Part shown: positions 6,438 through 29,273 of the stretch, one piece after another
How positions within the stretch are numbered: position 1 is the stretch's first letter
Layout of the letters: each line of letters begins with the position of its first letter
Assembly: GCF_013204845.1 (NCBI RefSeq)
Contig: NZ_JABMKY010000017.1
Coordinates: 1 to 64,000, forward strand
Length of the DNA: 64,000 bases
Reading direction: 5' to 3'
From: Paenibacillus qinlingensis
GTDB lineage: Bacteria; Bacillota; Bacilli; Paenibacillales; NBRC-103111
Notes under the pieces: model-generated
What the model was told of the DNA's origin: nothing
The model's database searches: none
Seen by the model: only the letters and a program-made list of their open reading frames with translations
Translations under genes and position numbers: made by a program

Positions 6438-7516
6438 TTGAGGCACAATCTTAAAGAAGAAATATTGAATCTTATGGAATCTAGACAAGAAGATAGTTTC
6501 TGGGATTTCAAGCAGAAGTTTCATTCAAATTCAGCTGCACTACTTCATGACATAATTTGTATGGCTAATAATCTTGTTGACCGGGACGCATATATCATTT
6601 TTGGTGTTGCTGATAAAACTTTCGAGGTAGTCGGGGTAGAGAATGATGAAAATCGAAGAAATCAACAACACATGATTGATTTGTTGAAACACAAAAAGTT
6701 TGTATCCGGGATTAGGCCAAGGGTGGAGGTAAAGACTTTAATTTTATCCAAGCATGAAGTTGATGTATTAATAATTAAGAATAGCATTGATACACCACAT
6801 TTTTTAATTGAAGATTTCTCTGAAAATGGAAAAAGGATCGAGCAAATTACATCTACACCCGGGTTGGTGACACTAACACTGATATTGATAGAAGTGCGGA
6901 TATTAATAATATTGAGTATCTCTGGAGAAAACGTTTCTTGCTGACAAGATCTCCGTTGGATCACATCATTAGGAGTCTGGAAAACAAAAACGAATGGAAT
7001 AGCGATGAAAATATTTACTTCAACATTTATAAACCGGAGTATACAATTACGCTGGAGGATTATGAAGATAATCGGAAATTGATTCCCGAGTTCTATTCCT
7101 ATGCGGTAAGTAATCCATCAACTATGTACCATTTACTAAGTATTAAATATCATGGAACTCAACTTTTCGGGAGCCAAGTCGTGATACTTGATAGCGGAAG
7201 GTATATTACGCCTACGCCTGATTGGGAGTTTATTCATTTTGGGGAATATCGAGTACATTCAGGTTACGGACTAAAATATTTTATTGAAGATAGTCCAACA
7301 TATAAGTTAAACGAATTCTTATATTACGAAGATAATTCTGAGGCTAGTTTTGCACGAAAGAGATTCTTTGAGGTCGTTCTCTTATTTAAGGATTGTTTGG
7401 AAAAGGAAACGTTTCTTGAGTACGTCCGTATTTATAAAGACGATTTCTTTCTTAAAATGGAAGCCTTAGAAGGTGAATGGTCATGGATTGAGTCAAGCAC
7501 CCAGCGACAGCAGGAG
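6438..7516 (+). pseudogene. Schlafen/AlbA_2-domain protein: frameshifted, then interrupted by a transposon
   Basis: TTG at 6438 follows AAGGA and starts an AlbA_2 (Schlafen-like ATP-binding) domain: EDSFWDFKQKFH, MANNLVDRDAYIIFGV, FEVVGVENDENRR. About one base is missing near 6848, because the continuation YTRVGDTNTDIDRSADINNIEYLWRKRF is in another frame. That frame runs to 7516, where an IS21-type end supplies the stop TGA (7517-7519). The natural tail resumes in frame at 14714. Members of this family are regulators or parts of defence islands. The original role here is unknown, and the gene is broken twice. Confidence 0.75.
7513..7516 (+). repeat. Target-site duplication GGAG, left copy
   Basis: GGAG at 7513-7516 is repeated at 14710-14713. 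The bases between carry inverted IS21-type ends, TGAGTATTTCGGTGC on the left and the complement of TGAATATTTCGGTGC on the right. Confidence 0.75.
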
Positions 7517-7611
7517 TGAGTATTTCGGTGCGGCAGAGCCGCTGGGTTAATGAGTGAGAGCCACGTTGTTAATGAAATAGAGCAACCCTCTCGGAGGTGA
7601 GAGCCACCGCG
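7517..7611 (+). repeat. Solo IS21-type end (left)
   Basis: It begins TGAGTATTTCGGTGC and shares GTTAATGAGTGAGAGCCAC with the right end in inverted orientation. AGAGCC-type repeats recur several times. No transposase gene is attached. Confidence 0.75.
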
Positions 7612-12477: not shown

Positions 12478-13221
12478 TTAAATCAACTGTGCTTTTCGCT
12501 TTCTCATCGAATCTTCGCCGTCGATGAGTATGTGATAGGAATTATGAACGATACGGTCTAATATAGCGTCTGCCATGGTGTGTTCTCCGATTTTATCGTG
12601 CCATCCTTCGGGAGCGAATTGAGAGATGAAAATCGTTGAAGCATTCTGATGCCGAGCCTCAATGATTTCCAGCAGATCTCTAGACTCTGTTATGGTCAAA
12701 GGAACCAGAAGCCATTCATCAATGATGAGAAGACTCACTTTCTTGTAGTTGGCGATAACTTTTTTGTAATTCCCTTCTCCTCGGGCTATGGCCAGGTCAG
12801 TTAATAGCTCCGGTAAGCGAATATACTTGGTTGCATAAAGATGGCGACAGGCGCCGTTTCCAAGCGCACAGCCGATAAAAGTTTTACCAGCGCCTGATGC
12901 CCCCATGAGAATGACGTTTAACTTTTCATGAATGTAATTACCCGTTGCGAGCCTTAGGATTTGGGATTGCTCTAAACGTCTGTCGGTATGATACTCAATG
13001 TCCTCCACACAAGCGTTTGGATAACGAAGCGTTGCTTTCTTGATGAGTCTGTTTAATTGGTTTGACTTACGCCTTGCCCATTCCGCATCTACTACTAGTC
13101 CGAATCGTTCTTCAAACGACAAACTGGCGTATGAGGGATTTTTCATCTGTTCACGCAAGGATTCTGCCATGGCACTTAGCCGCATTTCATTGAGTTTGGT
13201 GATCGTTGTGTTGGTTAGCAT
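12478..13221 (-). CDS. istB: IS21-family transposition helper ATPase IstB
   Basis: The product is 247 residues, the usual IstB length. It has the AAA+ Walker A ILMGASGAGKTFIG, Walker B LLIIDEW, and typical segments NPSYASLSFEERFGLVVDAEW and LDRIVHNSYHI. IstB loads onto target DNA and stimulates the IstA transposase. The ATG at 13221 directly follows the istA stop, with GGGAGG upstream inside istA, so it is coupled to istA. It appears intact. Confidence 0.92.
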   Translation of the reverse strand: MLTNTTITKLNEMRLSAMAESLREQMKNPSYASLSFEERFGLVVDAEWARRKSNQLNRLIKKATLRYPNACVEDIEYHTDRRLEQSQILRLATGNYIHEKLNVILMGASGAGKTFIGCALGNGACRHLYATKYIRLPELLTDLAIARGEGNYKKVIANYKKVSLLIIDEWLLVPLTITESRDLLEIIEARHQNASTIFISQFAPEGWHDKIGEHTMADAILDRIVHNSYHILIDGEDSMRKRKAQLI

Positions 13222-14549
13222 TTATGATTTCCTCCCATAGTAGGTTGAGCCGCGAGTCAAGCCATGCGGACTAACGGATGGAGGGTTTGGCTTTTCGATT
13301 GTGGCGGCTTCCTCAAGTGTGTCTTGGCCTGATTTGAGTATGGTGCTGATTTGTTTGTAGCTTGGATTCGGCGTGTAGCTGAGAGCCCGTGCACAAGCGG
13401 ACTCGAGCCGAATCAGCGAGTACCGGTCTGCTAATTTTAGTACGCCCATGCACGCTTTAAATCCTTGTTGCTCCACACGATGGCCAGCGAGAATAGCCTG
13501 GATTGTGGCGCTTGCATGGGGGCCTACTTGTTTAGCCCACGATACAAAGCGTTCTGCATTCCATTCTACAAATTGTTTATGCTTTTGTACGCAGTAAGGG
13601 GTAGCGGCTGCAGGGTGTGCTTCTCCTCGTCAAGAAATGCACTATGCCTGCTGCCCGGCTTTTTCTGGAAGGGTTTGCGATTGAATGCATCCAGTTTGTC
13701 TGCGATGGCCTCATTCAATTCACTGAGAGAGAAGAATGTATTCTTGCGTAAAGCAGCGAGGATCCAAGTCGATATGATACCAACGGTTCCCTCTACACTT
13801 GGCTTATCTTTCGGCTTTCGAACACGAGCTGGAATGACGGCTGTATCGTAATGCTCAGCCATTTCTTGATAAGTTTTGTTAATGACAGGGGAATACCAGG
13901 AGGATTGTTCTACACCGGTTTTAAGGTTGTCCGGCACTAGAATTTTGGGGACGCCTCCAAAATGAGTAAAGGCATTTACGTGGGCAGAAATCCAACTCTC
14001 TTGATTCTGAGATAGGAAGCCCTCTACATAAGCATATTGGCTGCACGGAAGTGCGGCGACAAAGATGTACACAGGAAGTATTTCTCCCGTATCTCGGTCC
14101 ACTAAAGTGGCGGTCTGACCGGCCCAGTCGACTTCCATTTGCTCGCCTGGCTTACGCTGAATATGCATCGTAGCCTTTGTCGTGGCAGCATATTTACGGT
14201 AGTAATTACAATATTGGGTGTACATGAGGGGGATCTCTCCGCCTAAGCGACAGTTCTCACAATATTCGCTCCAGAGCAAGCTAAGAGTAACGCCGCTCTT
14301 GGCTAATTCCCGATGCATATATTCGCAATCTGGAACTTTTCGCGAAGATGCCTGAGCCTTCTCAGGAAACAAGAGATACTGAAGGTCAGCTTCTACCACA
14401 TCCTCCGGTAGTGGCCATGATAGCTCCTTTTCATTTGCACGTTGTAACACCTCGGAGACGGTGTTGCGTGAGCATTGAATACTTGAAGCGATACTACGCT
14501 GGCTCAGCCCCATGCTATTGAGCCTTAAAATTTCTCGATACTTGGTCAT
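13222..14549 (-). pseudogene. istA: IS21-family transposase IstA with internal deletion
   Basis: The start at 14549 follows GGGAGG. The N-terminal HTH (MGLSQRSIASSIQCSRNTVSEVL) and the DDE core are present: MEVDWAGQT, VPDNLKTGV and KDKPSVEGTVG. After LPLTAYK the frame is lost. Just downstream another frame reads HKQFVEWNAERFVSWAKQVGP, then VEQQGFKACMGVLKLADRYS, the normal IstA C-terminus. The part linking these in the family (roughly 80 residues including the YSVPYEY-type segment) is absent, so an out-of-frame deletion near 13590 inactivated the gene. Confidence 0.85.
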
Positions 14550-14599
14550 TTCGATGACCTCCCGTTGGTATTTGTGCACTTGCTAGGCAGACGCACATC

Positions 14600-15154: not shown

Positions 15155-16567
15155 ATGGAACGTCTAACAATTAGATTGAAAATTGATCCAGGGGAAGCTT
15201 TGCTGAGTTTGATTCATCGTGCAGCTAAAGCAAATGGAATTAAATTTCTTACTTTGTTAAATATGCTGAAGAGAAACAAATATAGAATGCATTCTGGAGA
15301 CTCACATAAGATTGATATATTCCCTGAGAGTGTTTTAGATGTTAAAAAGGTTTCTTATATTTTAGGATTAGAGGAATCTGAGATAAAGAGAGCTAGCTTT
15401 ACTAATGTTTTAAGAAGTTTCAAAGGTTCAAGTAAAGAAGTACACTGTAGATTTTTAAATGGAATCATTCGGGACCATCTTTTTTATTGTCGAGATTGTT
15501 TATCAAATAAAATGGTATTGAATTTGATGTGGAAAGTTAAGGGGGTTGATACTTGTTTAATACACAAAAGGAAACTAAGCAATGAGTGTAGTAATTGTCG
15601 AAACGAACTATTGATTAAAGATACTAATCAAATTGGTATATGTCCATATTGTAAATATTGTTTTAATAAAAGGAATATAAATCCAATCTTGGTCTCAGAT
15701 GATCATTTCAAATTACAAACTAGAATACAAAGTGACTGGCATACCATCATAAGAGGTTTAATAAACAAAGAATTAAATGAAAAAGAGATTGCAATAAGAG
15801 TTTTGTATGTATTGGGCGGGAAAGAAGAGACATTCTGTAAGCTGAAAATTTTAACACTACTTGAGGATACAAAGCTCATTCATTTGCTTCAAATTGCTCG
15901 AGGTACAATGAAAAAGCGTACAATAGATTTTAAAACTTTATCGGATTACTTAACTGAAAAAAGTACGAGTATTACTGAGTTTTTATTAATGAAAGTTCCC
16001 CCTGATTTCACTCTATCTTTAGATTCTAATCGCGTGAAGATGGAAATAACTGCATGCAGTGCACCATGGTGTGAAAATTTTGATGTAAATAACTCTCTTG
16101 TACAGACAACATCCAAAAATGTTCGTAAAAAAGTAGAGGTTTTGAAACGTTATTATATTTGCCCTGCATGTGGATGCGAATATGCAACTAATAAGAAAAA
16201 CGAACTTGTCGAAAGGTCATATTTTATTAATGCTTATAAAGTATTATCAAATAGAAGTGTAAGTACATTGACCTGGATGGAAAGGGAAAAAGTGTTTGGA
16301 TTAAAACGAAATAAGATTATTCGTATTCAAGCATATTTTTATTCGAGAGCACTCTTTATTGATCTAATAAATGAAAGTAAGTATTCGGTCGAGGCAAACT
16401 TACTTGAATCGGTAAAGATTTCAATTAGGAATGGTGAGGCGATTTATACGATTCGTCATTGGGAAAAATGGCGAAGTGAAGAAGAGTATCTTTTGTATAG
16501 GTATCATCCTCAAATAATCTTTGAAATTTTCAAAGAAAGGTACAAATTTTTACCGCGGCAGGGATAA
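15155..16567 (+). CDS. tniQ: TniQ/TnsD-family target-selection protein 1
   Basis: The product is 470 residues. The N-terminal TniQ region (GEALLSLIHRAAKANG) is followed by a zinc-finger cluster: YCRDCL, W-VKGVDTCLIHKRKL, CSNCRNE, CPYCKYC (about residues 113-170). A second cysteine pair set (APWC, YICPACGCEYA, about 305-345) precedes a helix-turn-helix-like tail. TniQ/TnsD proteins recognise a DNA site and recruit TnsC and the transposase. Unusually, this copy sits upstream of the regulator and of tnsA, apart from the second tniQ at 21541. The shared second zinc finger (C--PWC) suggests the two are distant paralogues with different targets. Confidence 0.85.
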   Translation: MERLTIRLKIDPGEALLSLIHRAAKANGIKFLTLLNMLKRNKYRMHSGDSHKIDIFPESVLDVKKVSYILGLEESEIKRASFTNVLRSFKGSSKEVHCRFLNGIIRDHLFYCRDCLSNKMVLNLMWKVKGVDTCLIHKRKLSNECSNCRNELLIKDTNQIGICPYCKYCFNKRNINPILVSDDHFKLQTRIQSDWHTIIRGLINKELNEKEIAIRVLYVLGGKEETFCKLKILTLLEDTKLIHLLQIARGTMKKRTIDFKTLSDYLTEKSTSITEFLLMKVPPDFTLSLDSNRVKMEITACSAPWCENFDVNNSLVQTTSKNVRKKVEVLKRYYICPACGCEYATNKKNELVERSYFINAYKVLSNRSVSTLTWMEREKVFGLKRNKIIRIQAYFYSRALFIDLINESKYSVEANLLESVKISIRNGEAIYTIRHWEKWRSEEEYLLYRYHPQIIFEIFKERYKFLPRQG

Positions 16568-17691: not shown

Positions 17692-18312
17692 ATGGATTGG
17701 AGTAAAAAGGACTGGGAAATAGAAGATAGTTTATTTGAAGCAAAACGAAGAGTAGATAATAAAATAAGCTGGCAACACCCACACATTATAGGTACTTTTC
17801 CAAGCGTAAAAATGGAAAGAGATGTTGAATTTCACTCTCTGAACGAAAGACTATTTTATTATCTTCTTGAGTTAGACACTGAAGTAACTCGCTATTATGT
17901 TCAACCTATTGAGGTTGAAATGGAGTATCTTGATTCAGAAGGCCAAAAGAAAGTTTGGCACCATGTTCCAGATGTACTGGTGTTCAGACAAGGAGTTGAG
18001 CCTCAACTATTTCAAATTAAAGATTTATCAGCTGAACAGACAAAAACTTTTTTACTGTGTAACAAGAAATGTGAGATGTACGCTGCTCAGATGGAATGGT
18101 CCTATAAAGTAATTTATCCGAAGCAAATGCCTGAAAAAATCCAATCAAATATCAATTTCTTGGTTGGATTTCTAAAGAAAAGAAAGTCTTTTAGTAAATG
18201 GATAGATTTAGTTCTAAATAAAATGGAGAGTTTACAAGAATGTAAAATTATTCTTCTCGCAAAGAGCTTTCAATCTCACGTTGATTATCACGCAATTCTT
18301 CCCCTTATATAG
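17692..18312 (+). CDS. tnsA: TnsA-like endonuclease, shortened by an in-frame amber codon
   Basis: The product is 206 residues. The nuclease core has E52 (LNER), D94 (VPDVLVF) and Q108-x-K110 (QIKD), the restriction-like fold residues of TnsA, which cuts the 5' ends of the transposon. The frame stops at TAG 18310-18312, then continues open for 42 codons (HLIAIGLLEVSIKDP, then QVVRIGSIMKQL) to TAA at 18439-18441, overlapping the tnsB start by 14 bases. That overlap and coding content indicate the original gene was about 248 codons. The missing piece corresponds in position to the C-terminal domain through which Tn7 TnsA contacts TnsC. It is either a nonsense mutation or low-level read-through. 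Confidence 0.8.
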   Translation: MDWSKKDWEIEDSLFEAKRRVDNKISWQHPHIIGTFPSVKMERDVEFHSLNERLFYYLLELDTEVTRYYVQPIEVEMEYLDSEGQKKVWHHVPDVLVFRQGVEPQLFQIKDLSAEQTKTFLLCNKKCEMYAAQMEWSYKVIYPKQMPEKIQSNINFLVGFLKKRKSFSKWIDLVLNKMESLQECKIILLAKSFQSHVDYHAILPLI

Positions 18313-18427: not shown

Positions 18428-20479
18428 ATGAGACTAAATAAATTAAAGGAGAACATGGAATTCCATCTACACGGTATTAGACATCAGGTAGTTTCTATTG
18501 ATCCACCTAAAGTCTATGTAATAAGGGGAAAAAGCTCTCGAGAGGAGGAGTACGATTATTTTGAATTGATTAATGACCCAAGTTTTCAATCTTTAGATGT
18601 GGTTGTACAAAAAGTCGTTGAAGAAAAAAAAGGACAACATTATTCTCCTCTTGATTTATTGTTACCTGGACAAAGAGTGATTGTAACTAAGCGAAGTGAG
18701 ATGATTAAGCCAATACTACTATTACTGAAATTAAAAGCCGGTGATTTAAAGGCACGGATAGAGTTTACTGCACGATTTAAGCATCTTATTTTAAAACACG
18801 AAAAACCTGAGAAAATTAGCCAAGAATCATTAATTCATCGAATAGCTAAAATTTATAATGTGCATGAAAGAACAATTCATAGAAGATTGGCCGAGTATAA
18901 AAAACATGAAACAGCCCTGCCCAATCAAGGTCTTGTGGCATTAATTCCAAAAACTACTCGGCAAAATTTATCTCGTAAAGATTGTCATTTACTTGAAATA
19001 TGTCATCCAAAGAAGAAAGATCTAATTTTAGATGTAGTTAGGGTTAGAATTCCTTCTGCATGTCACACAATTATTAAAGAGGTTATTGAAACAGAGTTCC
19101 TTACATTAAAGAATGATTCTGCAAAAGCCATTTTTGATTTGATAGAAGCTAGATGCATTCTTCAGGATATCGATCCTCCTAAGTACGATACAATTTATAA
19201 ATTACTGAATAGGATAAATCCAGAAGTCCGAGCGAGAATGCGAGAAGGGAAAGTGGGAAGTGAGAAGTTCACGGAAGTTGAACGTGGTTTCTCAAACTAC
19301 GAAGCCAAGTATCCATTGCATATTGTTGAAATTGACCATACTGAATTTGATATGGATGTAATTGACGAGAAAACAGGTTATGTGATAGGACGTCCATATA
19401 TTACTTTGGGTATTGATGTGTTTAGTCGCAAAATTTGGTGTATGGAAATATCATTCGAACCACCTTCTGCAGATAAAGTTAGAAGGGCGATTATGCATGG
19501 CATCTTTTTTAAAGACGCAAAAAAGAAATATGACACAGTCTATGATTGGGATGTCTATGGGATCCCAACTATAATTTACATGGATAATGGACCAGAATTT
19601 AAAAACGCTGAGGTTAAACGAATGATTAATGAAACTCTTCAATCACAAGTTCAATATCGCCCGGTAAAGACACCAAGATATGGTGGTACAATTGAACGTT
19701 ATTTTGGAACTATTAACTCCGAATTAATTCACCGATTGCATGGTACTCGCAAAGGGAGCGTGAAACAAAAGGGTGATTATGATTCGGAGAAAGAGGCAGT
19801 TTTTACTCTAGAGGATATAAGAGAATTGTTAACTTTCTATATCACTAATTATCATTATGAACCACATTCAGGCCTCCCTATCCAATTTCCAACTACAGCA
19901 GCACGGTATTATGCGGGGCTAGAGATGGTCGGATTTCCAGAGTGGATTGATAAAGAAGACGAGGATTACTATAAAATGGAGTTACTTCCGGTTATTGTGA
20001 AACCCTACACGCGAGATGGTGTTCGTTTTGAGAATGTTCGTTATAAAAATTCTTCACAACATAAACTGGTTATGCCAAGAGAGTATAAGTACAAAGTTAA
20101 GTACGACTCGGATGATGTTTCAAAGCTTTTTTTACAGTTGCCAGAAACGGGTGAATACATTGAGTTAGTCGTTGCCGATAGATCTGTACTTGAAGAAATC
20201 GAGGGTTTGAATAGGTATACGTATAAAAAGGTAATGGAGGTACTGAGGGAACAAGGCAATCTTCTAGTAAAGCAAATTCCAGGTGCTGAGCTTATTAAAA
20301 AGGCGAAGGCAACACTTTTGGATCGTATTCAAAAATTAGTGAAAACCCGTAGGAAGGCAAGAGCTCAAGCAGAAAGGATGGCATTGGAAGTGGGAATTAA
20401 TGTAGCAATACCTCCACAGCCTAGTAAGCCAAAAACTGCTATTTCTTTAAGTGATATGTTTGATCAATTGGATGAATAG
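18428..20479 (+). CDS. tnsB: TnsB-like DDE transposase
   Basis: The product is 683 residues, close to Tn7 TnsB (702). An N-terminal DNA-binding region includes an HTH (RIAKIYNVHERTIHRRLAEY, about 137-157). The rve/DDE core has D303 (IDHTEFD), D386 (MDNGPEF) and E423 (GGTIERYFG). A beta-barrel follows, then a C-terminal basic tail (TRRKARAQAERMALE) and DMFDQLDE, which probably binds TnsC. It binds the end repeats and joins 3' ends to target DNA. It overlaps the extended tnsA frame and lies 13 bases before tnsC. Confidence 0.93.
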   Translation: MRLNKLKENMEFHLHGIRHQVVSIDPPKVYVIRGKSSREEEYDYFELINDPSFQSLDVVVQKVVEEKKGQHYSPLDLLLPGQRVIVTKRSEMIKPILLLLKLKAGDLKARIEFTARFKHLILKHEKPEKISQESLIHRIAKIYNVHERTIHRRLAEYKKHETALPNQGLVALIPKTTRQNLSRKDCHLLEICHPKKKDLILDVVRVRIPSACHTIIKEVIETEFLTLKNDSAKAIFDLIEARCILQDIDPPKYDTIYKLLNRINPEVRARMREGKVGSEKFTEVERGFSNYEAKYPLHIVEIDHTEFDMDVIDEKTGYVIGRPYITLGIDVFSRKIWCMEISFEPPSADKVRRAIMHGIFFKDAKKKYDTVYDWDVYGIPTIIYMDNGPEFKNAEVKRMINETLQSQVQYRPVKTPRYGGTIERYFGTINSELIHRLHGTRKGSVKQKGDYDSEKEAVFTLEDIRELLTFYITNYHYEPHSGLPIQFPTTAARYYAGLEMVGFPEWIDKEDEDYYKMELLPVIVKPYTRDGVRFENVRYKNSSQHKLVMPREYKYKVKYDSDDVSKLFLQLPETGEYIELVVADRSVLEEIEGLNRYTYKKVMEVLREQGNLLVKQIPGAELIKKAKATLLDRIQKLVKTRRKARAQAERMALEVGINVAIPPQPSKPKTAISLSDMFDQLDE

Positions 20480-20492
20480 GAGTTAATGAATT

Positions 20493-21518
20493 ATGACAAA
20501 TAAATTAATAGATGAAAAATTAGAACATTTCGATGAGGTAGACACATTTGCCAAAAGAGTCGCTGCACTTCATATTGTCCATCCGAAGGTGCAGAAGATT
20601 AGAGAAGCATTGAACTCTATTAGAAGATTAAATCAATACCGCGGCGGAAGCAATTCTCCACGACACCGTTTTGTTATTGGATTGTCTGGAGTAGGTAAAA
20701 CACAAATGATGAGAAGATATGCGGATCAGTGTGGAAATTATGTAGATGTTAATAAAGATGGAGATGAAATTGAAATTCGGCCAGTAGTTTATGTTAATCT
20801 TCCGGATCCATTTACGATAATGGAACTGTATCGAAGTATTATACATGGTTTGCGTGCACCACAACTTAATAGCAGAGCAAGCATTGGTGATGTTAAACAA
20901 CAGGTATTTACACTGCTTGAAGTTCAAAAAGTAGAAATGCTCATTTTAGATGAAATGGATCATATTTTAAATACAAGATATGTAACTGATGATGAGGCAA
21001 TGGGGGCTATAAAGCATATTACAAATCATGGGCAAGTATCTGTAATTTGTGTTGGAACTCCAGAAATTGAAAGATTGCGAAAATTGGATTCTCAGCATTT
21101 TAGAAGATACCCGCCTACAAAATTGGAACGATTTCTGAATTGTGATGACAATTTTTACGATTTACTGGCTTTAATTGAGGAGCAACTTGCTCCTCCGACC
21201 CCGATTGGATTTCAAATGCGGAAAGCAAGGTTATTAGAAGATGACAGTATTAAGGAAAATCAAAAATCTGATGACAGCGAAGCTAAATTGATTAAATCAG
21301 CTGAAAAAATTGCAAACACTCTGCATAGAAGTACATTTGGTCTGGTCGGTTATTTAACACCGATTCTACAAGAGGCATATAGCTTATTGGGGGTATTCGA
21401 AGCGTACTTCGATGAAGATACTGCTGATTTAAACCTTAGAAGAGTACTAAAACAAGCATATCAAAATATTGTTGGTGATGTTTCAGAGGAAGAATTAAAT
21501 AAGATGATTACAAGCTAA
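20493..21518 (+). CDS. tnsC: TnsC-like AAA+ ATPase
   Basis: The product is 341 residues. Walker A is GLSGVGKT (G63-T70), Walker B LILDEMDH (D153-E154), and a sensor-like TPEIERLRK follows. TnsC-type AAA+ proteins polymerise on DNA and link the TniQ target selector to TnsA/B. It is shorter than Tn7 TnsC (555), as in many Tn7-like elements. It is preceded by AGGAG and lies between tnsB and the second tniQ in one operon. Confidence 0.9.
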   Translation: MTNKLIDEKLEHFDEVDTFAKRVAALHIVHPKVQKIREALNSIRRLNQYRGGSNSPRHRFVIGLSGVGKTQMMRRYADQCGNYVDVNKDGDEIEIRPVVYVNLPDPFTIMELYRSIIHGLRAPQLNSRASIGDVKQQVFTLLEVQKVEMLILDEMDHILNTRYVTDDEAMGAIKHITNHGQVSVICVGTPEIERLRKLDSQHFRRYPPTKLERFLNCDDNFYDLLALIEEQLAPPTPIGFQMRKARLLEDDSIKENQKSDDSEAKLIKSAEKIANTLHRSTFGLVGYLTPILQEAYSLLGVFEAYFDEDTADLNLRRVLKQAYQNIVGDVSEEELNKMITS

Positions 21519-21540: not shown

Positions 21541-23514
21541 ATGAATGAAAGTTTCACTATTATACCAAGAGAAATAGAGCACGAGTCGTTGAGTGGTTAT
21601 TTAGATAAGGTATTTACTAAAAATAAGTTTTCTTTCGAATCACTTAAAAAAATAGAGGGTCTATTTCTCAATAATAAAGTTAACCATATCAAACAGCACC
21701 ACAGACTTGATTATTACCCTGAAACAGTAATTAATTTGCAACTGTTAGCTCGTCTGCTAGGTAGTGATATTCAAAATATTAAGAAAAAAACATTTTCCTA
21801 TCTCCTCGATTCATTCTCCAAAGTTTCAGGAACTAATAATCCTTTTGGAAAATCCGTTATGCATCAGTTGATTACAACTACGCGTAGATTTTGTACTGTT
21901 TGCTTATCAGAAGGAGTTACTCACAAATTGATGTGGCAAGTAAAAGAAATTAAAATTTGCAATATTCATAAGATCCCATTGGTGAATACTTGTAATAAAT
22001 GCGGGAAACAACAAACTTATCAGAACAGATGGGGCTTACACAGACGCTATTGTAATTATTGTACATTTGATCTATCAAAAAACATCGTTTTTCAAGTCGT
22101 TGTTGAAGATCAAGATTTAATTAGTGAACAATTAAATAGATATGAGGATTGGAGCGTATTACTTGATCCAAAACTTAGTGAATATAATTTGTTTAGAGGC
22201 AATAAGCAAAATTATATAGCCGCTCTTTATTATGTCAGTCAAGGGATGCCAGAAGTTTATAATAAGTCACTTGGAAATTTGGAGAGAAGGGAAGAAACTT
22301 TATTTAATTGTTCCTTGTTTAATAAGGAACGAGCACCAGAAAATATTGTCACATTAGAAAGAACCTTTAAATATACCAGAACCAAAAAAGTAGGGTTAAA
22401 AGAGTTTTTTGATCTAATAATACCGAGTGAATATATTAGATTGCTACTTTTAGACAAACATGCAAATAATATTACTCCTAGAAAATGCTTCAGTCCGTGG
22501 TGCAATTATTATCAAGATTCGAGTGGTTTAAAAACTGTTCATTTATCCCGTAAAAAATTAAAAACATTGTTGTATTTTTGTCGAGGGTGTCAGTTGACAT
22601 ATCGTTACGATTCAAACAAAAATTGGATTGAAGAAAAGGGCTATATACAGACAGGTTATGAGCAAGTGCTTCCACTTGTGAACAAAGGATACTCAGTTTA
22701 TAAGATTAGTAGGATACTAAGTATCCCTACCTCATTTATACAAAGGTCTACAGGGTATTTTGCCAACCATGATATGCTTAAGGGAGAAGCAAAAAATAAA
22801 TTTACACCGTTACATCTTCAAAATAATGTTTTAGACAAGTTTAAGCATATTGATAACATTCGAGGATCAATGTTTCTTGAAGCAAGACGGTTATACGGTT
22901 GGAGTTCAGCTGATTATTACTTTTATTTAGCGAATCATGAAGTTCAAGAGTATTTTATTAGTAATGATGTAACACAAAGTGCAGCTAGACAACAAATGGA
23001 GCCAAAAGTTATAAAAGCTGTACAGGATTTATATCAAAATAAGGTGTTAATCACTCATCAAAAAGTAGCAGACATTCTTGGTATTACTCCAAGTTTATTG
23101 GGAATATACAAATTTCAAGAGTACATAAGTGATTTTCAAAAAATACAGATCCAGCAAAAAATAGAAAACTTTTATGAAGAAGCTGAAATATACATAGATA
23201 GTGTTAAAGAGGAACCAACCTTTAGTAAGGGCGCAATTTATAAAATCACTGGATGTGATCGTAAGTGGACAGAAAAGTACATTGTGGATTTTGAAAACTG
23301 GTATAATACGAAAAAGAATGAGCACATGTCACAGTATTTGGTTTTTAAGGAAGAGCAGCTAAAAATTAAAATTTCCAATATTGTAAAAGAAAATAAATTA
23401 ATAGGACAGAAATTAACAGTTCGAGAATTTGCTGCTAAGTTAGGAACTAATAATACTTCATTATGGAGAATGAAAATTAACAATACTAAAATACAAGAAT
23501 TATTTCATAATTGA
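21541..23514 (+). CDS. tniQ: TniQ/TnsD-family target-selection protein 2
   Basis: ATG at 21541 follows GAGGAGG. The product is 657 residues, TnsD-sized. It has the N-terminal TniQ domain (HESLSGYLDKVF), a first zinc finger (CTVCLSEG, W-VKEIKICNIHKIPL, CNKCGKQ, CNYC, about 118-175) and a second one (CFSPWC, YFCRGCQLTYRY). A long C-terminal region with repeated HTH-like segments follows (KISRILSIPTSFIQR, VADILGITPSLLG), suited to reading a specific site. It probably directs insertion to a chromosomal attachment site. The target cannot be inferred from the flanks. Confidence 0.87.
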   Translation: MNESFTIIPREIEHESLSGYLDKVFTKNKFSFESLKKIEGLFLNNKVNHIKQHHRLDYYPETVINLQLLARLLGSDIQNIKKKTFSYLLDSFSKVSGTNNPFGKSVMHQLITTTRRFCTVCLSEGVTHKLMWQVKEIKICNIHKIPLVNTCNKCGKQQTYQNRWGLHRRYCNYCTFDLSKNIVFQVVVEDQDLISEQLNRYEDWSVLLDPKLSEYNLFRGNKQNYIAALYYVSQGMPEVYNKSLGNLERREETLFNCSLFNKERAPENIVTLERTFKYTRTKKVGLKEFFDLIIPSEYIRLLLLDKHANNITPRKCFSPWCNYYQDSSGLKTVHLSRKKLKTLLYFCRGCQLTYRYDSNKNWIEEKGYIQTGYEQVLPLVNKGYSVYKISRILSIPTSFIQRSTGYFANHDMLKGEAKNKFTPLHLQNNVLDKFKHIDNIRGSMFLEARRLYGWSSADYYFYLANHEVQEYFISNDVTQSAARQQMEPKVIKAVQDLYQNKVLITHQKVADILGITPSLLGIYKFQEYISDFQKIQIQQKIENFYEEAEIYIDSVKEEPTFSKGAIYKITGCDRKWTEKYIVDFENWYNTKKNEHMSQYLVFKEEQLKIKISNIVKENKLIGQKLTVREFAAKLGTNNTSLWRMKINNTKIQELFHN

Positions 23515-23597: not shown

Positions 23598-24032
23598 GTT
23601 CTTGTAGAGACCATTAGAAAAAATGCAAAATTAATTCAAGCCAAAAATGAAAGGATTATTACAGCGAAAGGCGAGGACAATCAGCGATGGGATTTGGTTA
23701 ATAAGTGGTCAGAAGGGGAAAAGTATGCAGTCTATATGATGATGTTCATGATAATCGTTAATTATGTCAGGAAACAGGCGGATGCAAGATTCAGTGTGAT
23801 GAAAACAATTGTAGCTGACAATCCTTTCGGAAAAGCATCTTCCGGTCATATCTTAAAACCGATATTCGAAATTGCGAAAAAGAACCAAGTGAAACTTATT
23901 TGTTTCACCGCTCATAGGGCGGAGGAAATCTTAAGAAACTTTCCAACGTGCTACAGCATTATAGGGAGAAATGTTTATGGCAAGGCAGTTATGATCGCAT
24001 CAAAATTAGAAGTGGCTTATGTGAAGAAATAA
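23598..24032 (+). pseudogene. C-terminal remnant of an SMC/Rad50-like ATPase
   Basis: The frame has no start of its own and is open from before 23598. It reads KWSEGEKYAVYMMMF (ABC signature type), then TIVADNPFGKASSGHIL (Walker B and D-loop) and LICFTAHRAEEI (H-loop). This is the C-terminal half of a large SMC/SbcC-like ATPase. The N-terminal Walker A half and coiled coil are missing. Such ATPases are common in defence and repair systems, so this may be the trace of an earlier cargo system replaced or deleted behind the tns operon. Confidence 0.6.
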
Positions 24033-24342: not shown

Positions 24343-27300
24343 ATGGGGAACAATTTAGAAGAAGTTGAGATTTTATATGAAAACCAGTTTACTGTTGTTA
24401 GGAAGATGAAAGATACTACGAAAAATAATTTTGTGGTTGTAAAAGAAATTAAGAATATGGATCACTTAACTAAATTATTCTTTGATAGAGAAATAAATGC
24501 GTTGAAGAAACTTAACAACTGCACATCAATCGTTAAAATGAATCATTACGAAGTAATTCCTATTAACGAGAATCATTCGGTAGGTAAAATATTTCTTGAG
24601 TTTCTTGAAGGGCAAAGTTTAGCAAACGTAGATCTAGCTCTGATTGATATTAGAGAAAGATATGGGATTTTGAAGCAGATTATTGACGCTGTTGAATCAG
24701 CACATTCAAATAACATCATACATAGAGATATTAAACCAGATAATATAATGATAACTGACTATAGATATGCAAAATTAATTGATTTTGGGATTTCTAAAAT
24801 AAAGGGGATGGTGACAAGGGCAACCGTAGGAAACTTTTCAAGCAATTTCTATACGGCTCCAGAGGTTGGCTATCATCAAGAAAATGCAACATTTCAAAGC
24901 GATTTGTTTTCTTTAGGAGTGACATTATTTTATTTGTTGACAAATTGCGAACCCCGATTACCAACTGAATTTCAAACTCAGTTATTAGAAACTACTGGAA
25001 TAAATCCAACATTGAAACAAATTCTTATGAAGGCTACTCAATTAGATCCAAAAGATAGATATGAGAATATAACTGATTTAAAAAGAGATGTAATGGTAAG
25101 TCTAGGTGAACTATTTAATGTATCTAAATTCTTAATTTCAGTGCCTACTACGATTCTTCAAAAGGCTAAAAGCAGAAGATTTATTCCCAACGGGATTAGT
25201 TTCCAAGAATTTATAGACAAGCATTTACCTCAATGGTTTAAAGGCTCTTTTGCTTTTATTGAATCTAGTTTAAATGGTAATTCACGTCTAGAGGAAAATC
25301 ATGATGTTATTTTTTATGCAAATCAATATAAATTGCGTTGTACATATAATGAAAAAGAAGAATATTTTATCATTGAAGACATAATTCATGTAGCACCAAA
25401 AGTAAGGAATTATCTCTCGGAAACATATATGAAAGTAAATGGCATAATTAGCTTTATAGCTTCTGGTAGCCGCTATACGACAGAACATAGTACATATGAG
25501 TTAGCGACGGAGTTGACTGAGCATCGGATGGCGTATGAATCTGATGATAGTAAACGAAATGCTTTCGATCGGTTTTTTAGCATCTGGATTGATTACTTGA
25601 ATAAAGAGAAGGAATTACTCAAATCTTCAGCAAAAACAATAGACTACAAATCAATACAAAAAAATGCAAATACAGTGGAGCTTGAGCTTGACTTTGATAT
25701 AGAAGTGGATCAATTAGACTTTAATCATGAAACAAATCTAATATATGATCCAACTTATTTAAATACAAAAGCGCGCGAAAAAATAACTCAGATTGGTAAT
25801 TATAAAGATATCAGGTATGCTGATGGTAAAATCATTCTAACTTTAGAATCTGCAAAAGGATTTAAACCAAGTACAATTCCTCAGGTTGGTTTTGTAGTAA
25901 CTGACTATAAGTCCTCTTCTTTTGTTATTGAGAAGCAAATTAAGGCATTACAACTGTTGAGAAGAAATGAATCTGAATGTAATGAAAACTTGAGGGATCT
26001 TATACTGGGATTTGAAAAACCAACTAACTATGAAAATTTAACAGAGATATCTTTCTTTAATAAAGATCTTGATATAAATCAAAGAGACGCTGTGAAAAAA
26101 GCTTTGAATACATCATCTGTTTGTGTTATTCAAGGACCACCTGGTACTGGGAAAACTTCAGTAATTCGAGAGTTTGTTAATCAGATAATTAAAAGAAACA
26201 GCGATGAGATTGGCTTAAGGAAAAATAGAATACTAATCGTATCTCAATCACACACTGCTGTAGACCATGTTTTAGAAGGATTAGAATTGAATGACAAGTT
26301 GAATACCAAAGTAATAAGGATTGGCAAAAGTGCTAATGTATTAGAAGGAATTTGGAAAAAATTTAGCGTTGAAAATTCTCATACTAATTGGGTAATTAAT
26401 ACAACCAAAGCATCTAACACAAGAATGGCTGAAATTACTTCGTATTATGGTATAGATCAATCGGATCTAGATAAATATTGTGAAATAATCTTTAAGCAAA
26501 AAAGGCAGGAATTTATTGACGAGGCATGTATAGCATTTATTGAGGAATTCGAAAGAACTCTGGATGAAGAAAAATGGCGTATAGTTAGAACAACACAAAT
26601 ACAAAAAGAGTGGGTTGCTAGACTCAAGCTTGCAAAAGATTCAGAAGAAAGGGTAGTGGAAAACTCAACAATAGTTGCAGGAACTTGTACTGGATTCAAT
26701 TCAAATTCAATTGTGAAATCAATGGCTTTTGATTATGTTATTGTGGATGAGGCTGCAAAAGCTAGTGTACCTGAGATATTAATACCACTGCTCAGAGGTA
26801 GTAGGTTGATACTTGTTGGTGACCATAATCAACTTCCGCCAATAATAAAAGATGAAGTAATAAAGAATTGCTATAATAAAGACAAAAAAAACTATGAAAA
26901 CGGCTTGTTTGCTCATTTATTTGAACAATTTCCCTCTTCAAATCGTGTTCAATTATCTATGCAATATAGGATGCATAGAACGATAGGGAAAATGATAAGT
27001 GAGGTTTTCTATGATAGTCGAATAGATACTGGTATAGAAGATTCTAAACGTAGTCATCAAGTAATTCCATTTATAGATAAACAAATTGTGTGGGTTTCGA
27101 CGAGTGATTACCCGTTAGAAAAAAAGAAGGATTCAGAAGGTGTAGGACGCTCATTCGTTAATATACTTGAGATACGTGAGATTAAAAATTTGCTTATTAA
27201 ACTAGATCAGGAAGCATCTAAGGATTTTGAAGTAGCCGTAATTACCGGATATAGTGCACAAAAGTTCGCAATTGCCGAGGCTATCAAGGTTCTACGTTTT

Positions 27301-27600
27301 AAGCATCTTTCCTTAAATAATATCGAAGTTAACACAGTTGATGCTTACCAAGGTAGAGATAAGGATATTGTAATTTATAGCACAGTGAGAAGTAATATAA
27401 AGGATGAAATAGGTTTTCAGCGGTCCGAAAAGCGTGTGAATGTTGCTTTATCTCGTGCGAGAAGACTGCTGATACTTGTTGGAGACCACCTGATGTTTGG
27501 TAGAAATAAAGAGGTAACAAACAGATTCCCAGGAATTATTAATTATATGAATAGACATGTTGAGTGCAGTATCCAGAGATTAGAGGTGAAAAATGATTAA
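24343..27600 (+). CDS. Ser/Thr kinase fused to SF1 UPF1-like helicase
   Basis: The product is 1085 residues. The N-terminal Hanks-type kinase has K34 (VVKEIK), the catalytic loop HRDIKPDN (H127-N134) and DFG (D147), all intact. Residues about 265-580 are a linker with no recognised domain. The C-terminal UPF1-like SF1 helicase has GPPGTGKT (598-605), VDEAAK (D802-E803), GDHNQLPP, the Q-Y-R region MQYRMH, DAYQGRDKD and NVALSRARR. Both enzymatic parts look active. The domain order recalls MkoA of type I Mokosh anti-phage systems, from memory of the published architecture. The next gene overlaps by 8 bases. Location in Tn7-like cargo fits a defence role, which is inference. Confidence 0.85.
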   Translation: MGNNLEEVEILYENQFTVVRKMKDTTKNNFVVVKEIKNMDHLTKLFFDREINALKKLNNCTSIVKMNHYEVIPINENHSVGKIFLEFLEGQSLANVDLALIDIRERYGILKQIIDAVESAHSNNIIHRDIKPDNIMITDYRYAKLIDFGISKIKGMVTRATVGNFSSNFYTAPEVGYHQENATFQSDLFSLGVTLFYLLTNCEPRLPTEFQTQLLETTGINPTLKQILMKATQLDPKDRYENITDLKRDVMVSLGELFNVSKFLISVPTTILQKAKSRRFIPNGISFQEFIDKHLPQWFKGSFAFIESSLNGNSRLEENHDVIFYANQYKLRCTYNEKEEYFIIEDIIHVAPKVRNYLSETYMKVNGIISFIASGSRYTTEHSTYELATELTEHRMAYESDDSKRNAFDRFFSIWIDYLNKEKELLKSSAKTIDYKSIQKNANTVELELDFDIEVDQLDFNHETNLIYDPTYLNTKAREKITQIGNYKDIRYADGKIILTLESAKGFKPSTIPQVGFVVTDYKSSSFVIEKQIKALQLLRRNESECNENLRDLILGFEKPTNYENLTEISFFNKDLDINQRDAVKKALNTSSVCVIQGPPGTGKTSVIREFVNQIIKRNSDEIGLRKNRILIVSQSHTAVDHVLEGLELNDKLNTKVIRIGKSANVLEGIWKKFSVENSHTNWVINTTKASNTRMAEITSYYGIDQSDLDKYCEIIFKQKRQEFIDEACIAFIEEFERTLDEEKWRIVRTTQIQKEWVARLKLAKDSEERVVENSTIVAGTCTGFNSNSIVKSMAFDYVIVDEAAKASVPEILIPLLRGSRLILVGDHNQLPPIIKDEVIKNCYNKDKKNYENGLFAHLFEQFPSSNRVQLSMQYRMHRTIGKMISEVFYDSRIDTGIEDSKRSHQVIPFIDKQIVWVSTSDYPLEKKKDSEGVGRSFVNILEIREIKNLLIKLDQEASKDFEVAVITGYSAQKFAIAEAIKVLRFKHLSLNNIEVNTVDAYQGRDKDIVIYSTVRSNIKDEIGFQRSEKRVNVALSRARRLLILVGDHLMFGRNKEVTNRFPGIINYMNRHVECSIQRLEVKND

Positions 27601-28960
27601 CTTAAGCATAGAGAAGCAAATTGCAAAGATAAAGAAAAGAATAGATGGGGCAACGTACATTAAATCTGTGACTGTTGGAATTCCATATGCCATTATTAAT
27701 CTAGATATATCCGTTAGAAAAGAAATAACTATTTCATTTTTTCATGAAATTGTATTGAAGTTCATCGGAGAAAATTGGAACAACTATGATGAACTACTGA
27801 AAGTTTTAGGAATAGATCAAGACTTTTTAGATAACATCCTGTTAGAGTTAGGAAGAAGTGATTATATTGTTCACTCTGGCAAACAGTTATTTCTGACAAG
27901 TAAAGGGAAAAATATCCTCATAGAACTAAAGTCTGTGTTGATAGAGCCAGACTTTTTAAATAACATCTTTGTTAATTTGATGGATGGGTCAATTCATACA
28001 GATCTTTTACTAAAAGAATCTAACCATACAGATGTTTGTCTAAATAACATTTGGGAAGTTGATCTCAGTTTTTTTATTAATAAAGAAGATAAATTAAGGG
28101 ATATTTTTCTAATTCAACAACGAAAGGAAGAAGAATCCATAAGCTCAGAATTTAATCAACGAACCGAGCTCTATCGAATTATGGACATTCAAAGGAACAG
28201 AATTATTTTTCATGAAGTAGATTTGGATATATATTACGCTGAGGACGATAAGTCTCTATTATTTGAATTCAATATGGGATCTAATAATACTCATCAAGAC
28301 TTTTTAGTTAAGTCTATTAGGGAACAGATTGATACTCATCCGAAAACTGTAGATCGTTTGTTCGATACTGAATATTATAAAAGAAATAAATGGTTCAATT
28401 TAAATGCTGGAGAAATAGTTGATCTACCTAATTTAGTTGAATTGAAGAAGGAATTCTTACAGTATGAGGACACCTTAATTAGTTCTAAAGAAGGCGCAAG
28501 AGATGGCCGCGAGTTAGTAAATCATCAAAATACTCTAAATAACAGATTAATGTTATATAAGGAATATAAAGATTGGATGCAATTATTACCTGATTTATCA
28601 AATAATGAATGTTTAATTATTTCAGATAAATTCCAACAAATAACTGATGATGATACTATTTTTACAATTATTAATAAAATAAGTGAGAAGAATAAAATAA
28701 TATTAAAATACAAAGTTGGAGATAATAATACCAAGAAATTTATCGATAAGATTCAAAGGGATTCCTCAAAAAATAAAAACATTGTAACTTCCATATCTGC
28801 TAATCAAATAATGGGAACTACAATTATAGTTAAAAAAACAGTTATGATAAAAGTGTTTTATAACCCAATTATAGTAATGAACGAAATAATCTTTGAGGAA
28901 ATTCCTTATATTTCGTTTGATGAGCAAGAAATTAATGCTGAGTTTGACAGGTTATTGTAA
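27593..28960 (+). CDS. Unknown 455-residue partner of the kinase-helicase
   Basis: ATG at 27593 overlaps the kinase-helicase gene, with GAGGTG upstream. I do not recognise the product. An N-terminal segment (about residues 60-115: LKVLGIDQDFLDNILLELGRSDYIVHSGKQLFLTSKG) looks like a winged helix. The rest is acidic and lysine-rich with a helical centre and a beta-rich end (IIVKKTVMIKVFYNPIIV). A phospholipase-D HxK motif, expected in a Mokosh partner, is not visible. It may bind nucleic acid or act as a substrate or effector of the kinase. The overlap makes joint function likely. Confidence 0.6.
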   Translation: MINLSIEKQIAKIKKRIDGATYIKSVTVGIPYAIINLDISVRKEITISFFHEIVLKFIGENWNNYDELLKVLGIDQDFLDNILLELGRSDYIVHSGKQLFLTSKGKNILIELKSVLIEPDFLNNIFVNLMDGSIHTDLLLKESNHTDVCLNNIWEVDLSFFINKEDKLRDIFLIQQRKEEESISSEFNQRTELYRIMDIQRNRIIFHEVDLDIYYAEDDKSLLFEFNMGSNNTHQDFLVKSIREQIDTHPKTVDRLFDTEYYKRNKWFNLNAGEIVDLPNLVELKKEFLQYEDTLISSKEGARDGRELVNHQNTLNNRLMLYKEYKDWMQLLPDLSNNECLIISDKFQQITDDDTIFTIINKISEKNKIILKYKVGDNNTKKFIDKIQRDSSKNKNIVTSISANQIMGTTIIVKKTVMIKVFYNPIIVMNEIIFEEIPYISFDEQEINAEFDRLL

Positions 28961-29065: not shown

Positions 29066-29137
29066 TGCCAAAAGACATTACAGAAAAAAACGATTTATGA
29101 CAATTATCATTACAGTGTATGCCAAGTAATCGTTACA
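29066..29137 (+). repeat. Three TnsB-site-like repeats at the far Tn7-like end
   Basis: TGCCAA-N6-TTACA at 29066-29082, TGACAA-N6-TTACA at 29098-29114 and TGCCAA-N7-TTACA at 29120-29137 form a direct array, ending in ACA as Tn7-like termini do. Tn7 ends carry 3-4 such sites for TnsB. They lie past the last cargo gene, so the far end is probably at 29137 or within a few bases. No matching duplication was found on the other side. Confidence 0.5.
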
Positions 29138-29161
29138 AAACACCTCGAAAAGGGGTGTTTT
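29137..29161. terminator. Hairpin adjoining the transposon end
   Basis: AAAACACC (29137-29144) pairs with GGTGTTTT (29154-29161). A-rich and T-rich arms allow termination in both directions. It abuts the last TnsB-like repeat. Confidence 0.55.
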
Positions 29162-29215
29162 CAATGACAAAGTGAATTACAACTCACATGGAAAGTGAAT
29201 TTCACAAATAAGATG

Positions 29216-29256
29216 ATCCCGATGTGGCTTAAAGCCTTAGTACATCGGGATTTTTT
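29216..29256 (+). terminator. Terminator facing the exporter operon
   Basis: ATCCCGATGT (29216-29225) is the inverse of 29242-29251, followed by six T. It blocks transcription leaving the Tn7-like element toward the convergent ABC operon. Confidence 0.7.
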
Positions 29257-29273
29257 ATATTTATATCATGTAT

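What the first reader, a model, noticed from the sequence alone, without database searches (positions are those of the whole stretch)
24343..28960. Kinase-helicase fusion with an unrecognised coupled partner as Tn7-like cargo: candidate defence system
One 1085-residue protein joins a complete Hanks kinase (K34, HRD 127-129, DFG 147) to a complete UPF1-like SF1 helicase (Walker A 598-605, DEAA 802). An overlapping gene encodes a 455-residue protein of no family I know. The fusion recalls MkoA of type I Mokosh (from memory). The partner shows no phospholipase-D HxK motif, and a 300-residue linker between kinase and helicase has no recognised domain. This could be a diverged Mokosh or a distinct two-gene system. 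Its place behind tniQ next to another ATPase remnant fits a cargo slot that turns over defence modules.
Basis: partly seen in the sequence, partly recalled or inferred. Interest (0 to 1): 0.8.

Follow-up and report, generated by a model that had tools for sequence, protein, structure and literature searches.

The report
Mokosh defence with a dead nuclease
A transposon-like element in a bacterium carries a known kind of anti-virus defence, called Mokosh, in which the part that should cut nucleic acid seems to keep its shape but has lost its cutting residues, which suggests that some Mokosh systems work in another way.

Summary
In detail: an intact 1085-aa kinase-helicase gene (24343-27600) overlaps a 455-aa gene (27593-28960). 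The pair is not a new system. The first protein matches MkoA along its length (E 3.9e-178), the second MkoB (E 1.8e-26): the subunits of type I Mokosh. More than half of the 'unrecognised linker' is stalk and 1B barrel of a UPF1-type helicase. The MkoB C-terminus is predicted to have a phospholipase-D fold, but H, K and D of HxKxxxxD are M407, T409 and K414. The motif is absent from all 23 full-length MkoB gathered for this Bacillota lineage. Among 20 other MkoA loci read it is present in 10; the 10 without are two of this lineage and eight with shorter partners. On MkoA trees the five lineage pairs form one well-supported clade; a Bacillus-type lineage lost the site separately. So this is a pseudo-PLD variant of Mokosh, whose output is probably not MkoB cleavage. 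The cargo reading is supported: the pair lies between tniQ, a JetC (Wadjet) remnant and a putative transposon right end, and a sister element carries Gabija and a UG31 reverse transcriptase in that slot. Defence activity was not tested.

The parts
24343..27600 (+). mkoA, 1085 aa: Hanks-type Ser/Thr kinase (residues 1-258), unassigned alpha/beta segment (about 263-400), UPF1/IGHMBP2-like SF1 helicase with stalk and 1B barrel (about 401-1085)
   Evidence: PADLOC MkoA PDLC03920 E 3.9e-178 over residues 17-1078; Pfam Pkinase, AAA_11, AAA_12; model pLDDT 85.5 and fold matches
25129..25542 (+). MkoA residues 263-400, the only part of the 'linker' without an assigned fold
   Evidence: Predicted alpha/beta segment; one Pfam hit below cut-off; barely tested by the fold search
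27593..28960 (+). mkoB, 455 aa, overlaps mkoA by 8 bp: N-terminal strands, winged helix, middle domain, C-terminal PLD-fold domain
   Evidence: PADLOC MkoB PDLC03923 E 1.8e-26 and PDLC03922 6.4e-14; model pLDDT 72.8
27731..27934 (+). MkoB residues 47-114, winged helix-turn-helix
28526..28957 (+). MkoB residues 312-455, phospholipase-D fold without its active site
28811..28834 (+). Site of HxKxxxxD: M407-G-T409-T-I-I-V-K414, so H to M, K to T, D to K
   Evidence: MAFFT alignments and hhalign agree
23694..24032 (+). Remnant of JetC (Wadjet), C-terminal part only
   Evidence: PADLOC JetC PDLC00585 E 2.5e-29, profile positions 1340-1427 of 1457
15155..16567 (+). tniQ-family gene, first copy
   Evidence: Pfam TniQ E 4.1e-11
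17692..18312 (+). tnsA-like gene
   Evidence: Pfam Tn7_TnsA-like_N E 4.2e-5, below curated cut-off; position before tnsB
18428..20479 (+). tnsB-like DDE transposase gene
   Evidence: PADLOC TnsB E 5.8e-38
20493..21518 (+). tnsC/tniB-like AAA+ gene
   Evidence: Pfam TniB E 2.8e-33
21541..23514 (+). tniQ/tnsD-like gene, second copy
   Evidence: Pfam TniQ E 5.6e-9, PADLOC TniQ E 4.6e-12
29066..29188 (+). Putative transposon right end: four TnsB-site-like repeats (29066, 29098, 29120, 29165), ending CTCACA at 29188
   Evidence: Repeats; the terminal 24 bp equal the left terminus of a sister element in G039, whose right end is 80% identical over 99 bp

Best explanation
A two-gene anti-mobile-element operon of the Mokosh kind, carried as cargo of a Tn7-like element. 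SHOWN (by sequence and predicted fold): MkoA joins a kinase and a UPF1-like helicase, both with their catalytic residues; MkoB has a winged helix and a PLD fold that lacks H, K and D of the PLD active site, and the MkoB sampled from its Bacillota lineage share this state. INFERRED: the helicase engages RNA (or an RNA-containing intermediate) of the invader; MkoB acts as a non-catalytic nucleic-acid-binding or scaffold subunit; the signal is executed by MkoA, most likely by its kinase phosphorylating a host or phage target and stopping growth or replication. Part confidences: Mokosh kind 0.95; MkoB catalytically dead as a PLD 0.85; anti-phage role 0.85; kinase as output 0.35 (lowered slightly after one search showed a relative with neither kinase nor PLD end).
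For: Full-length MkoA match and MkoB match. Kinase and helicase residues invariant in 36 of 36 aligned MkoA. PLD fold by Foldseek and VIA-align, and homology of the four Paenibacillus-type C-termini to HKD-bearing ones (hhalign E 1.2e-5; 0 of 60 shuffles as good). HxKxxxxD absent in 23 of 23 full-length MkoB gathered for the lineage and in 3 short ones. The 5 pairs with MkoA known form one clade, 100/99 support, on two MkoA trees. Both genes are intact in the window and in the four other pairs read, which argues against decay. Precedent: the PLD-fold DUF1669 of FAM83 proteins lacks PLD activity and binds CK1 Ser/Thr kinases (PMC6008594, abstract); FAM83B is among the structural matches.
Against: No direct evidence that the kinase is the output. 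HKD-bearing Mokosh also keeps the kinase, so its retention does not single it out; a cyanobacterial relative (L014) has no kinase hit and a short MkoB without PLD end, so neither part is universal. 20 of the 23 MkoB were query members of, or found by, a profile made of site-less sequences, or both, so the 23 are not an unbiased sample. The MkoB model came from 15 sequences (pTM 0.45) of which 9 bear HKD, so the fold may lean on them. For the gut (Clostridia-type) members the direct profile match to HKD domains is inconclusive (E 0.0069; 1 of 57 scored shuffles as good).
Confidence: 0.5

Rival explanations
1. Ordinary nuclease Mokosh: MkoB still cuts nucleic acid, through a different or cryptic active site in the PLD fold or elsewhere.
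For: MkoB is kept beside MkoA in all five lineage loci read; type I Mokosh is described as helicase plus PLD nuclease (PMC11672841, passages). R318, E324 and D327 are conserved in 22 of 23.
Against: H, K and, in the window, D of the motif are all replaced; no conserved cluster of catalytic-type residues stands at the active-site position. E324 is nearly invariant in HKD-bearing MkoB too, so it is not a replacement site.
Confidence: 0.2
2. Helicase-only output: MkoAB blocks or strips phage RNA or R-loops; the kinase only regulates the complex.
For: UPF1/IGHMBP2/SETX-like helicase with intact motifs. A cyanobacterial relative (L014) matches MkoA in its helicase but shows no kinase hit, and its MkoB is 302 aa without PLD end.
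Against: The kinase catalytic residues are invariant in the 36 aligned MkoA; that is also compatible with a regulatory kinase.
Confidence: 0.2
3. A decaying cargo: the transposon is a relic and mkoAB no longer functions.
For: JetC remnant beside it, PDC-S50-like gene split in two frames, insertion-sequence genes upstream, no left end found that pairs with the right end.
Against: Both genes are open over their whole length, overlap, and keep kinase and helicase residues; the loss of the site is shared by relatives and so is old.
Confidence: 0.1

Closest known systems
Type I Mokosh (MkoA + MkoB)
   Same: Gene order, full-length MkoA match, MkoB match
   Different: MkoB lacks the PLD catalytic motif of the described nuclease
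Type II Mokosh (MkoC)
   Same: UPF1-like helicase; a PLD fold in the system
   Different: Two genes, a kinase is present, and the window MkoB gives no hit to the MkoC model at E 0.1, unlike HKD-bearing MkoB
Bacillus-type Mokosh with 585-588 aa MkoB (L157, L158)
   Same: MkoA family, HKD also lost (NxKxxxxD in L158)
   Different: Separate MkoA clade and an added C-terminal stretch with RNxxxH or RHxxxH, HEPN-like by eye only
Cyanobacterial MkoA-like loci (L014, L018, L022, L027, L053)
   Same: UPF1-like helicase protein followed by a protein matching the MkoB N-terminus, no HxKxxxxD
   Different: Partner only 300-346 aa; the one large protein scanned (L014) shows no kinase
FAM83 DUF1669 pseudo-PLDs and TrmB/TrmBL2
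   Same: PLD-like fold; FAM83 without PLD activity; TrmBL2 matched across winged helix and PLD-like part
   Different: No sequence relationship shown; likeness of fold only
Tn7-like transposons with defence cargo (PMC8649781, passages and search listing)
   Same: tnsABC and tniQ, defence genes as cargo
   Different: Left end of this element not found; the listing counts no occurrence of Mokosh in that paper

Membership tests
Type I Mokosh | MkoA with Ser/Thr kinase and UPF1-like (COG1112) helicase in one protein | tested here: met
Type I Mokosh | Adjacent mkoB homologue | tested here: met
   PDLC03923 E 1.8e-26; relatives in G093 and G663 likewise, 8.4e-29 and 8.2e-62
Type I Mokosh | MkoB has a PLD fold | tested here: met
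Type I Mokosh | PLD nuclease active site HxKxxxxD in MkoB | tested here: not met
   M407, T409, K414 in its place; absent in 23 of 23 of the lineage. Hence filed as a variant, not as type I Mokosh proper
Type I Mokosh | Protects against phages | not testable with these tools
   No experiment possible
Type II Mokosh | Helicase and PLD nuclease in one protein | tested here: not met
   Two genes
Wadjet | jetABCD | tested here: not met
   Only a C-terminal JetC piece between tniQ and mkoA
Tn7-like transposon | tnsA, tnsB, tnsC and tniQ-family genes | tested here: met
   tnsA below its curated Pfam cut-off
Tn7-like transposon | Paired ends with target-site duplication | tested here: inconclusive
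   Putative right end at 29188; left end not found at up to 3 mismatches. The G039 sister has both ends and a 5-bp duplication ACATC

The most novel reading that the evidence does not exclude
Mokosh is a helicase sensor with exchangeable outputs: in this Bacillota branch the nuclease subunit has become a catalytically dead PLD scaffold, in the way FAM83 pseudo-PLDs hold CK1, so that the MkoA kinase rather than nucleic-acid cutting executes immunity; a second branch lost the same site separately and took on an added RNxxxH-bearing module as a replacement effector; a cyanobacterial branch dropped the PLD end and perhaps the kinase.
Probability: 0.3. Interest if true: 0.65.

Novelty: new variant of a known kind. 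Interest (0 to 1): 0.45.

Why it matters
Mokosh is described as a helicase with a PLD nuclease effector (PMC11672841, passages). A natural branch without the nuclease site makes the role of the kinase and of MkoB directly testable: if such systems protect, cutting by MkoB is not the general mechanism. The PADLOC models label this branch MkoB like the others, so automatic annotation may credit it with an activity it lacks.

Tried and rejected
Distinct new system: rejected, both proteins match Mokosh models. MkoB search in 398 genomes drawn from the phylum gave 65 'hits', but all except the window's own had E of 5e-6 or weaker and spanned only a short stretch, mostly in the winged-helix part, so I count 1 of 398; 2 of 104 in the family, own included. 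MkoA at E 1e-80 or better: 3 of 296 genomes of the order, own included. P0034 (Bacillus-type MkoA) at E 1e-60: 5 of 398 of the class, own included. No match to MkoA in plasmids at E 1e-60 or phages at E 1e-40. MkoB alone found nothing in genome contigs. A search round another genome of the phylum gave 0 of 20. P0018, an apparent kinase-VWA protein, looks like an assembly chimera on a 2.5-kb contig and was left out.

What was counted and dropped: the MkoA search of genome contigs was capped and kept 80 loci; I read gene order in 20 of them, chosen because the match reached well beyond the helicase or the locus looked alike. All 20 partners match an MkoB model, the weakest L027 at E 3.2e-5. HxKxxxxD is in 10 of 20: L006, L008, L009, L010, L012, L023, L028, L029, L032, L045. 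It is not in L004 and L005 (window's lineage), L007 (355 aa), L014, L018, L022, L027, L053 (cyanobacteria, 300-346 aa), L056, L058 (Chloroflexota, 414-420 aa; their large ORFs as cut show no DFG). So the missing motif is not unique to this lineage; what marks the window's lineage is a near full-length PLD-fold domain without it. itself compared 9 HKD-bearing partners; L010 was added. Three further loci: L157 and L158 without it, L159 with HEKVLLVD. Left out of the second tree: L028, L056, L058, P0010, P0012, P0023, P0029, P0040, P0041, partly for long branches. Of 60 shuffles for the gut group 57 gave a score.

tns-like genes were sought by tblastn beside 16 other Mokosh loci: found only near L158, through its flank L177. 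A link between the window's right end and the left-end-like site at C23:52722 of the same genome was considered; the bases beside the two ends do not match, so no pairing is claimed. The not-in-print statement rests on searches 8 (279 papers, 30 listed), 74, 75, 78, 117, 118 and 121 of one open-access library; the original Mokosh paper is not held and the naming of the system is from recall and the papers cited.
Full report
OBSERVATION. The two ORFs exist as described. mkoA runs 24343-27600 and mkoB 27593-28960, overlapping by 8 bp, with AGAGGTG upstream of the second ATG. They sit in a low-GC stretch (2-kb windows from 22 to 29 kb: 30.5-33.1%; windows right of 29 kb mostly 39-51%).

IDENTITY. 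Against PADLOC the first protein matches MkoA along residues 17-1078 (E 3.9e-178); the second matches two MkoB models (1.8e-26 over residues 20-444, and 6.4e-14). Pfam and NCBIfam show kinase and helicase families for the first and none above cut-off for the second. Relatives with about 50% identical MkoA in G093 and G663 have the same two-gene arrangement. In 20 further MkoA-like loci read for gene order, the partner matched an MkoB model in all 20, from E 3.3e-79 down to 3.2e-5. So the pair is of the Mokosh kind.

LOSS OF THE ACTIVE SITE. HxKxxxxD (D or E allowed last) occurs in none of 23 full-length MkoB of the window's lineage (window, P0002, G093, G663, L004, L005, P0123-P0139), nor in three shorter ones. 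P0123-P0139 were found with a profile of the six others, so this sample shows uniformity within the lineage, not its share of all MkoB; the MkoA partners of P0002 and P0123-P0139 were not seen. At that place P0002 reads NxTxxxxD, and G093 and G663 read RxTxxxxD. Of the 20 other loci read, 10 have the motif (Actinomycetota, Bacteroidota, a Verrucomicrobia bin, an unnamed rumen bacterium) and 10 do not: the lineage members L004 and L005, a 355-aa partner (L007), five cyanobacterial partners of 300-346 aa and two Chloroflexota ones of 414-420 aa. Loss of the PLD function therefore looks wider than this lineage; a nearly full-length PLD-fold domain without the motif is what marks it.

TREES. On an IQ-TREE tree of 31 MkoA-like proteins, the five with partners known to be of the site-less lineage fall in one clade (100/99). 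In a second tree of 25, with three more Bacilli-class loci, the clade stays (100/99), and two Bacillus-type MkoA (kin of P0034 from Bacillus cereus), whose MkoB also lack H, form a separate clade (100/100), while a third from the same class keeps HEKVLLVD. By the simplest count, with no regain, the site was lost separately in these two. Both trees carry warnings of uneven letter make-up, the first also of long branches. PADLOC model PDLC03923 matches the site-less G663 protein over nearly its whole length (E 8.2e-62), so the existing family probably already holds such proteins.

THE SECOND LINEAGE. In L157 and L158 MkoB is 588 and 585 aa, with a longer C-terminus that bears RNSVQH and RHSTEH. 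By recall R-polar-xxx-H is the HEPN RNase motif; no Pfam family was matched there, so this is a lead only. Residues 467-575 of the L158 protein match a hypothetical protein on an Enterococcus plasmid (37.6%, E 7e-13), which fits an exchangeable module. L158 lies near a tnsA-like gene and, in its flank, a tnsB-like one.

THE CARRIER. tniQ, tnsA, tnsB, tnsC and a second tniQ precede the pair. Behind mkoB lie four repeats of the type TGMCAA-N-TTACA and a terminus ending at 29188. In same-genus genome G039 a sister element (TnsB 65% identical, tns genes 71-72% identical in DNA over the aligned parts) has a left terminus identical to it over 24 bp and a right end 80% identical over 99 bp, from C9:181485 to 220487 (39.0 kb), with the 5-bp duplication ACATC on both sides. 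Between its tniQ and its right end it carries GajA (4.3e-216), GajB (3.6e-129), a patatin-like protein (named by eye; weak PADLOC phospholipase-effector hit, 3.7e-5) and an RT of class UG31 (2.9e-98). The same slot in the window holds the JetC piece and mkoAB. This supports a slot that exchanges defence modules. The window element's left end was not found: the genome has one other copy of the terminus, at C23:52699-52722, whose flank does not pair with it. After 29188 follow bases that resemble the inside of a left end, so the right junction may be rearranged. Mokosh is not generally tied to Tn7-like elements: tblastn with the window's Tns proteins found kin beside 1 of 16 other Mokosh loci.

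MECHANISM. Shown: kinase and helicase residues in place, PLD fold (predicted), no PLD active site, conserved pairing. Inferred: the helicase senses invader RNA, MkoB holds nucleic acid or the kinase without cutting, and MkoA is the executor, most likely through phosphorylation. Against a general kinase output stands the cyanobacterial L014 locus, whose large protein matches MkoA only in its helicase and shows no kinase hit, and whose MkoB has no PLD end. Five lineage loci (window, L004, L005, L116, L117) show no recurring third gene in their ORF lists, judged by eye over the stretches held. FAM83 proteins are a precedent for a PLD fold that lost catalysis and binds Ser/Thr kinases (PMC6008594, abstract and outline); that is a likeness, not kinship.

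LITERATURE. PMC11672841 (passages) describes type I Mokosh as RNA helicase and PLD nuclease in separate genes with an added kinase domain. PMC11291487 (passages) says Mokosh degrades viral transcripts; PMC12926258 (passages) lists its mechanism as unknown. PMC8649781 (passages) lists defence cargo of Tn7-like elements, with Wadjet in 34 transposons of Proteobacteria and Actinobacteria. PMC12839542 (passages) discusses catalytically inactive nuclease domains in BREX-related systems and has no occurrence of Mokosh. PMC12278908 (one passage) counts MkoA and MkoC among SF1/SF2 defence helicases. Searches showed no paper reporting MkoB without its PLD site; they cover one open-access library and partly capped lists.

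VERDICT. Not a new system; a new variant of Mokosh with a dead PLD, in a mobile defence slot. Interest moderate.

Noticed in passing
window 6438-7519: Two neighbouring ORFs in different frames match the first and second halves of one PADLOC candidate defence protein, PDC-S50 (E 1.7e-60 and 3.5e-48): apparently one gene split.
   Followed up: partly
L157:4238-6001 and L158:3867-5621: Bacillus-type MkoB with HKD lost and an added C-terminal stretch with RNxxxH/RHxxxH, possibly HEPN; the stretch also matches a protein on an Enterococcus plasmid.
   Followed up: partly
L014:8461-13669 and the like loci L018, L022, L027, L053: Cyanobacterial MkoA-like proteins of 1434-1444 aa followed by 300-346 aa proteins matching only the MkoB N-terminal part; L014 shows no kinase.
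   Followed up: partly
G039:C9:181485-220487 (L170-L172): Complete 39-kb sister Tn7-like element with ACATC duplication, carrying Gabija, a patatin-like protein and a UG31 reverse transcriptase.
   Followed up: yes
window 29189-29262: A hairpin (TCCCGATGTGG...ACATCGGGA) next to the right end recurs in same-genus genomes and lies inside left ends of related elements.
   Followed up: partly
G000:C23:52699-52722: A left-end-like terminus downstream of a TrkA-like and an rRNA-methyltransferase-like gene (named by eye); in G039 the sister element sits behind the same two genes, suggesting a fixed attachment site.
   Followed up: partly
window 12478-14579: IstB-like gene and an rve-type transposase gene, IS21-like, directly left of the first tniQ; this may have damaged the element's left side.
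   Followed up: no
L117:8156-9325: DUF4062 protein (E 2.5e-13) divergent from mkoA in G663, with a transposase-like and an integrase-like gene nearby (named by eye).
   Followed up: no
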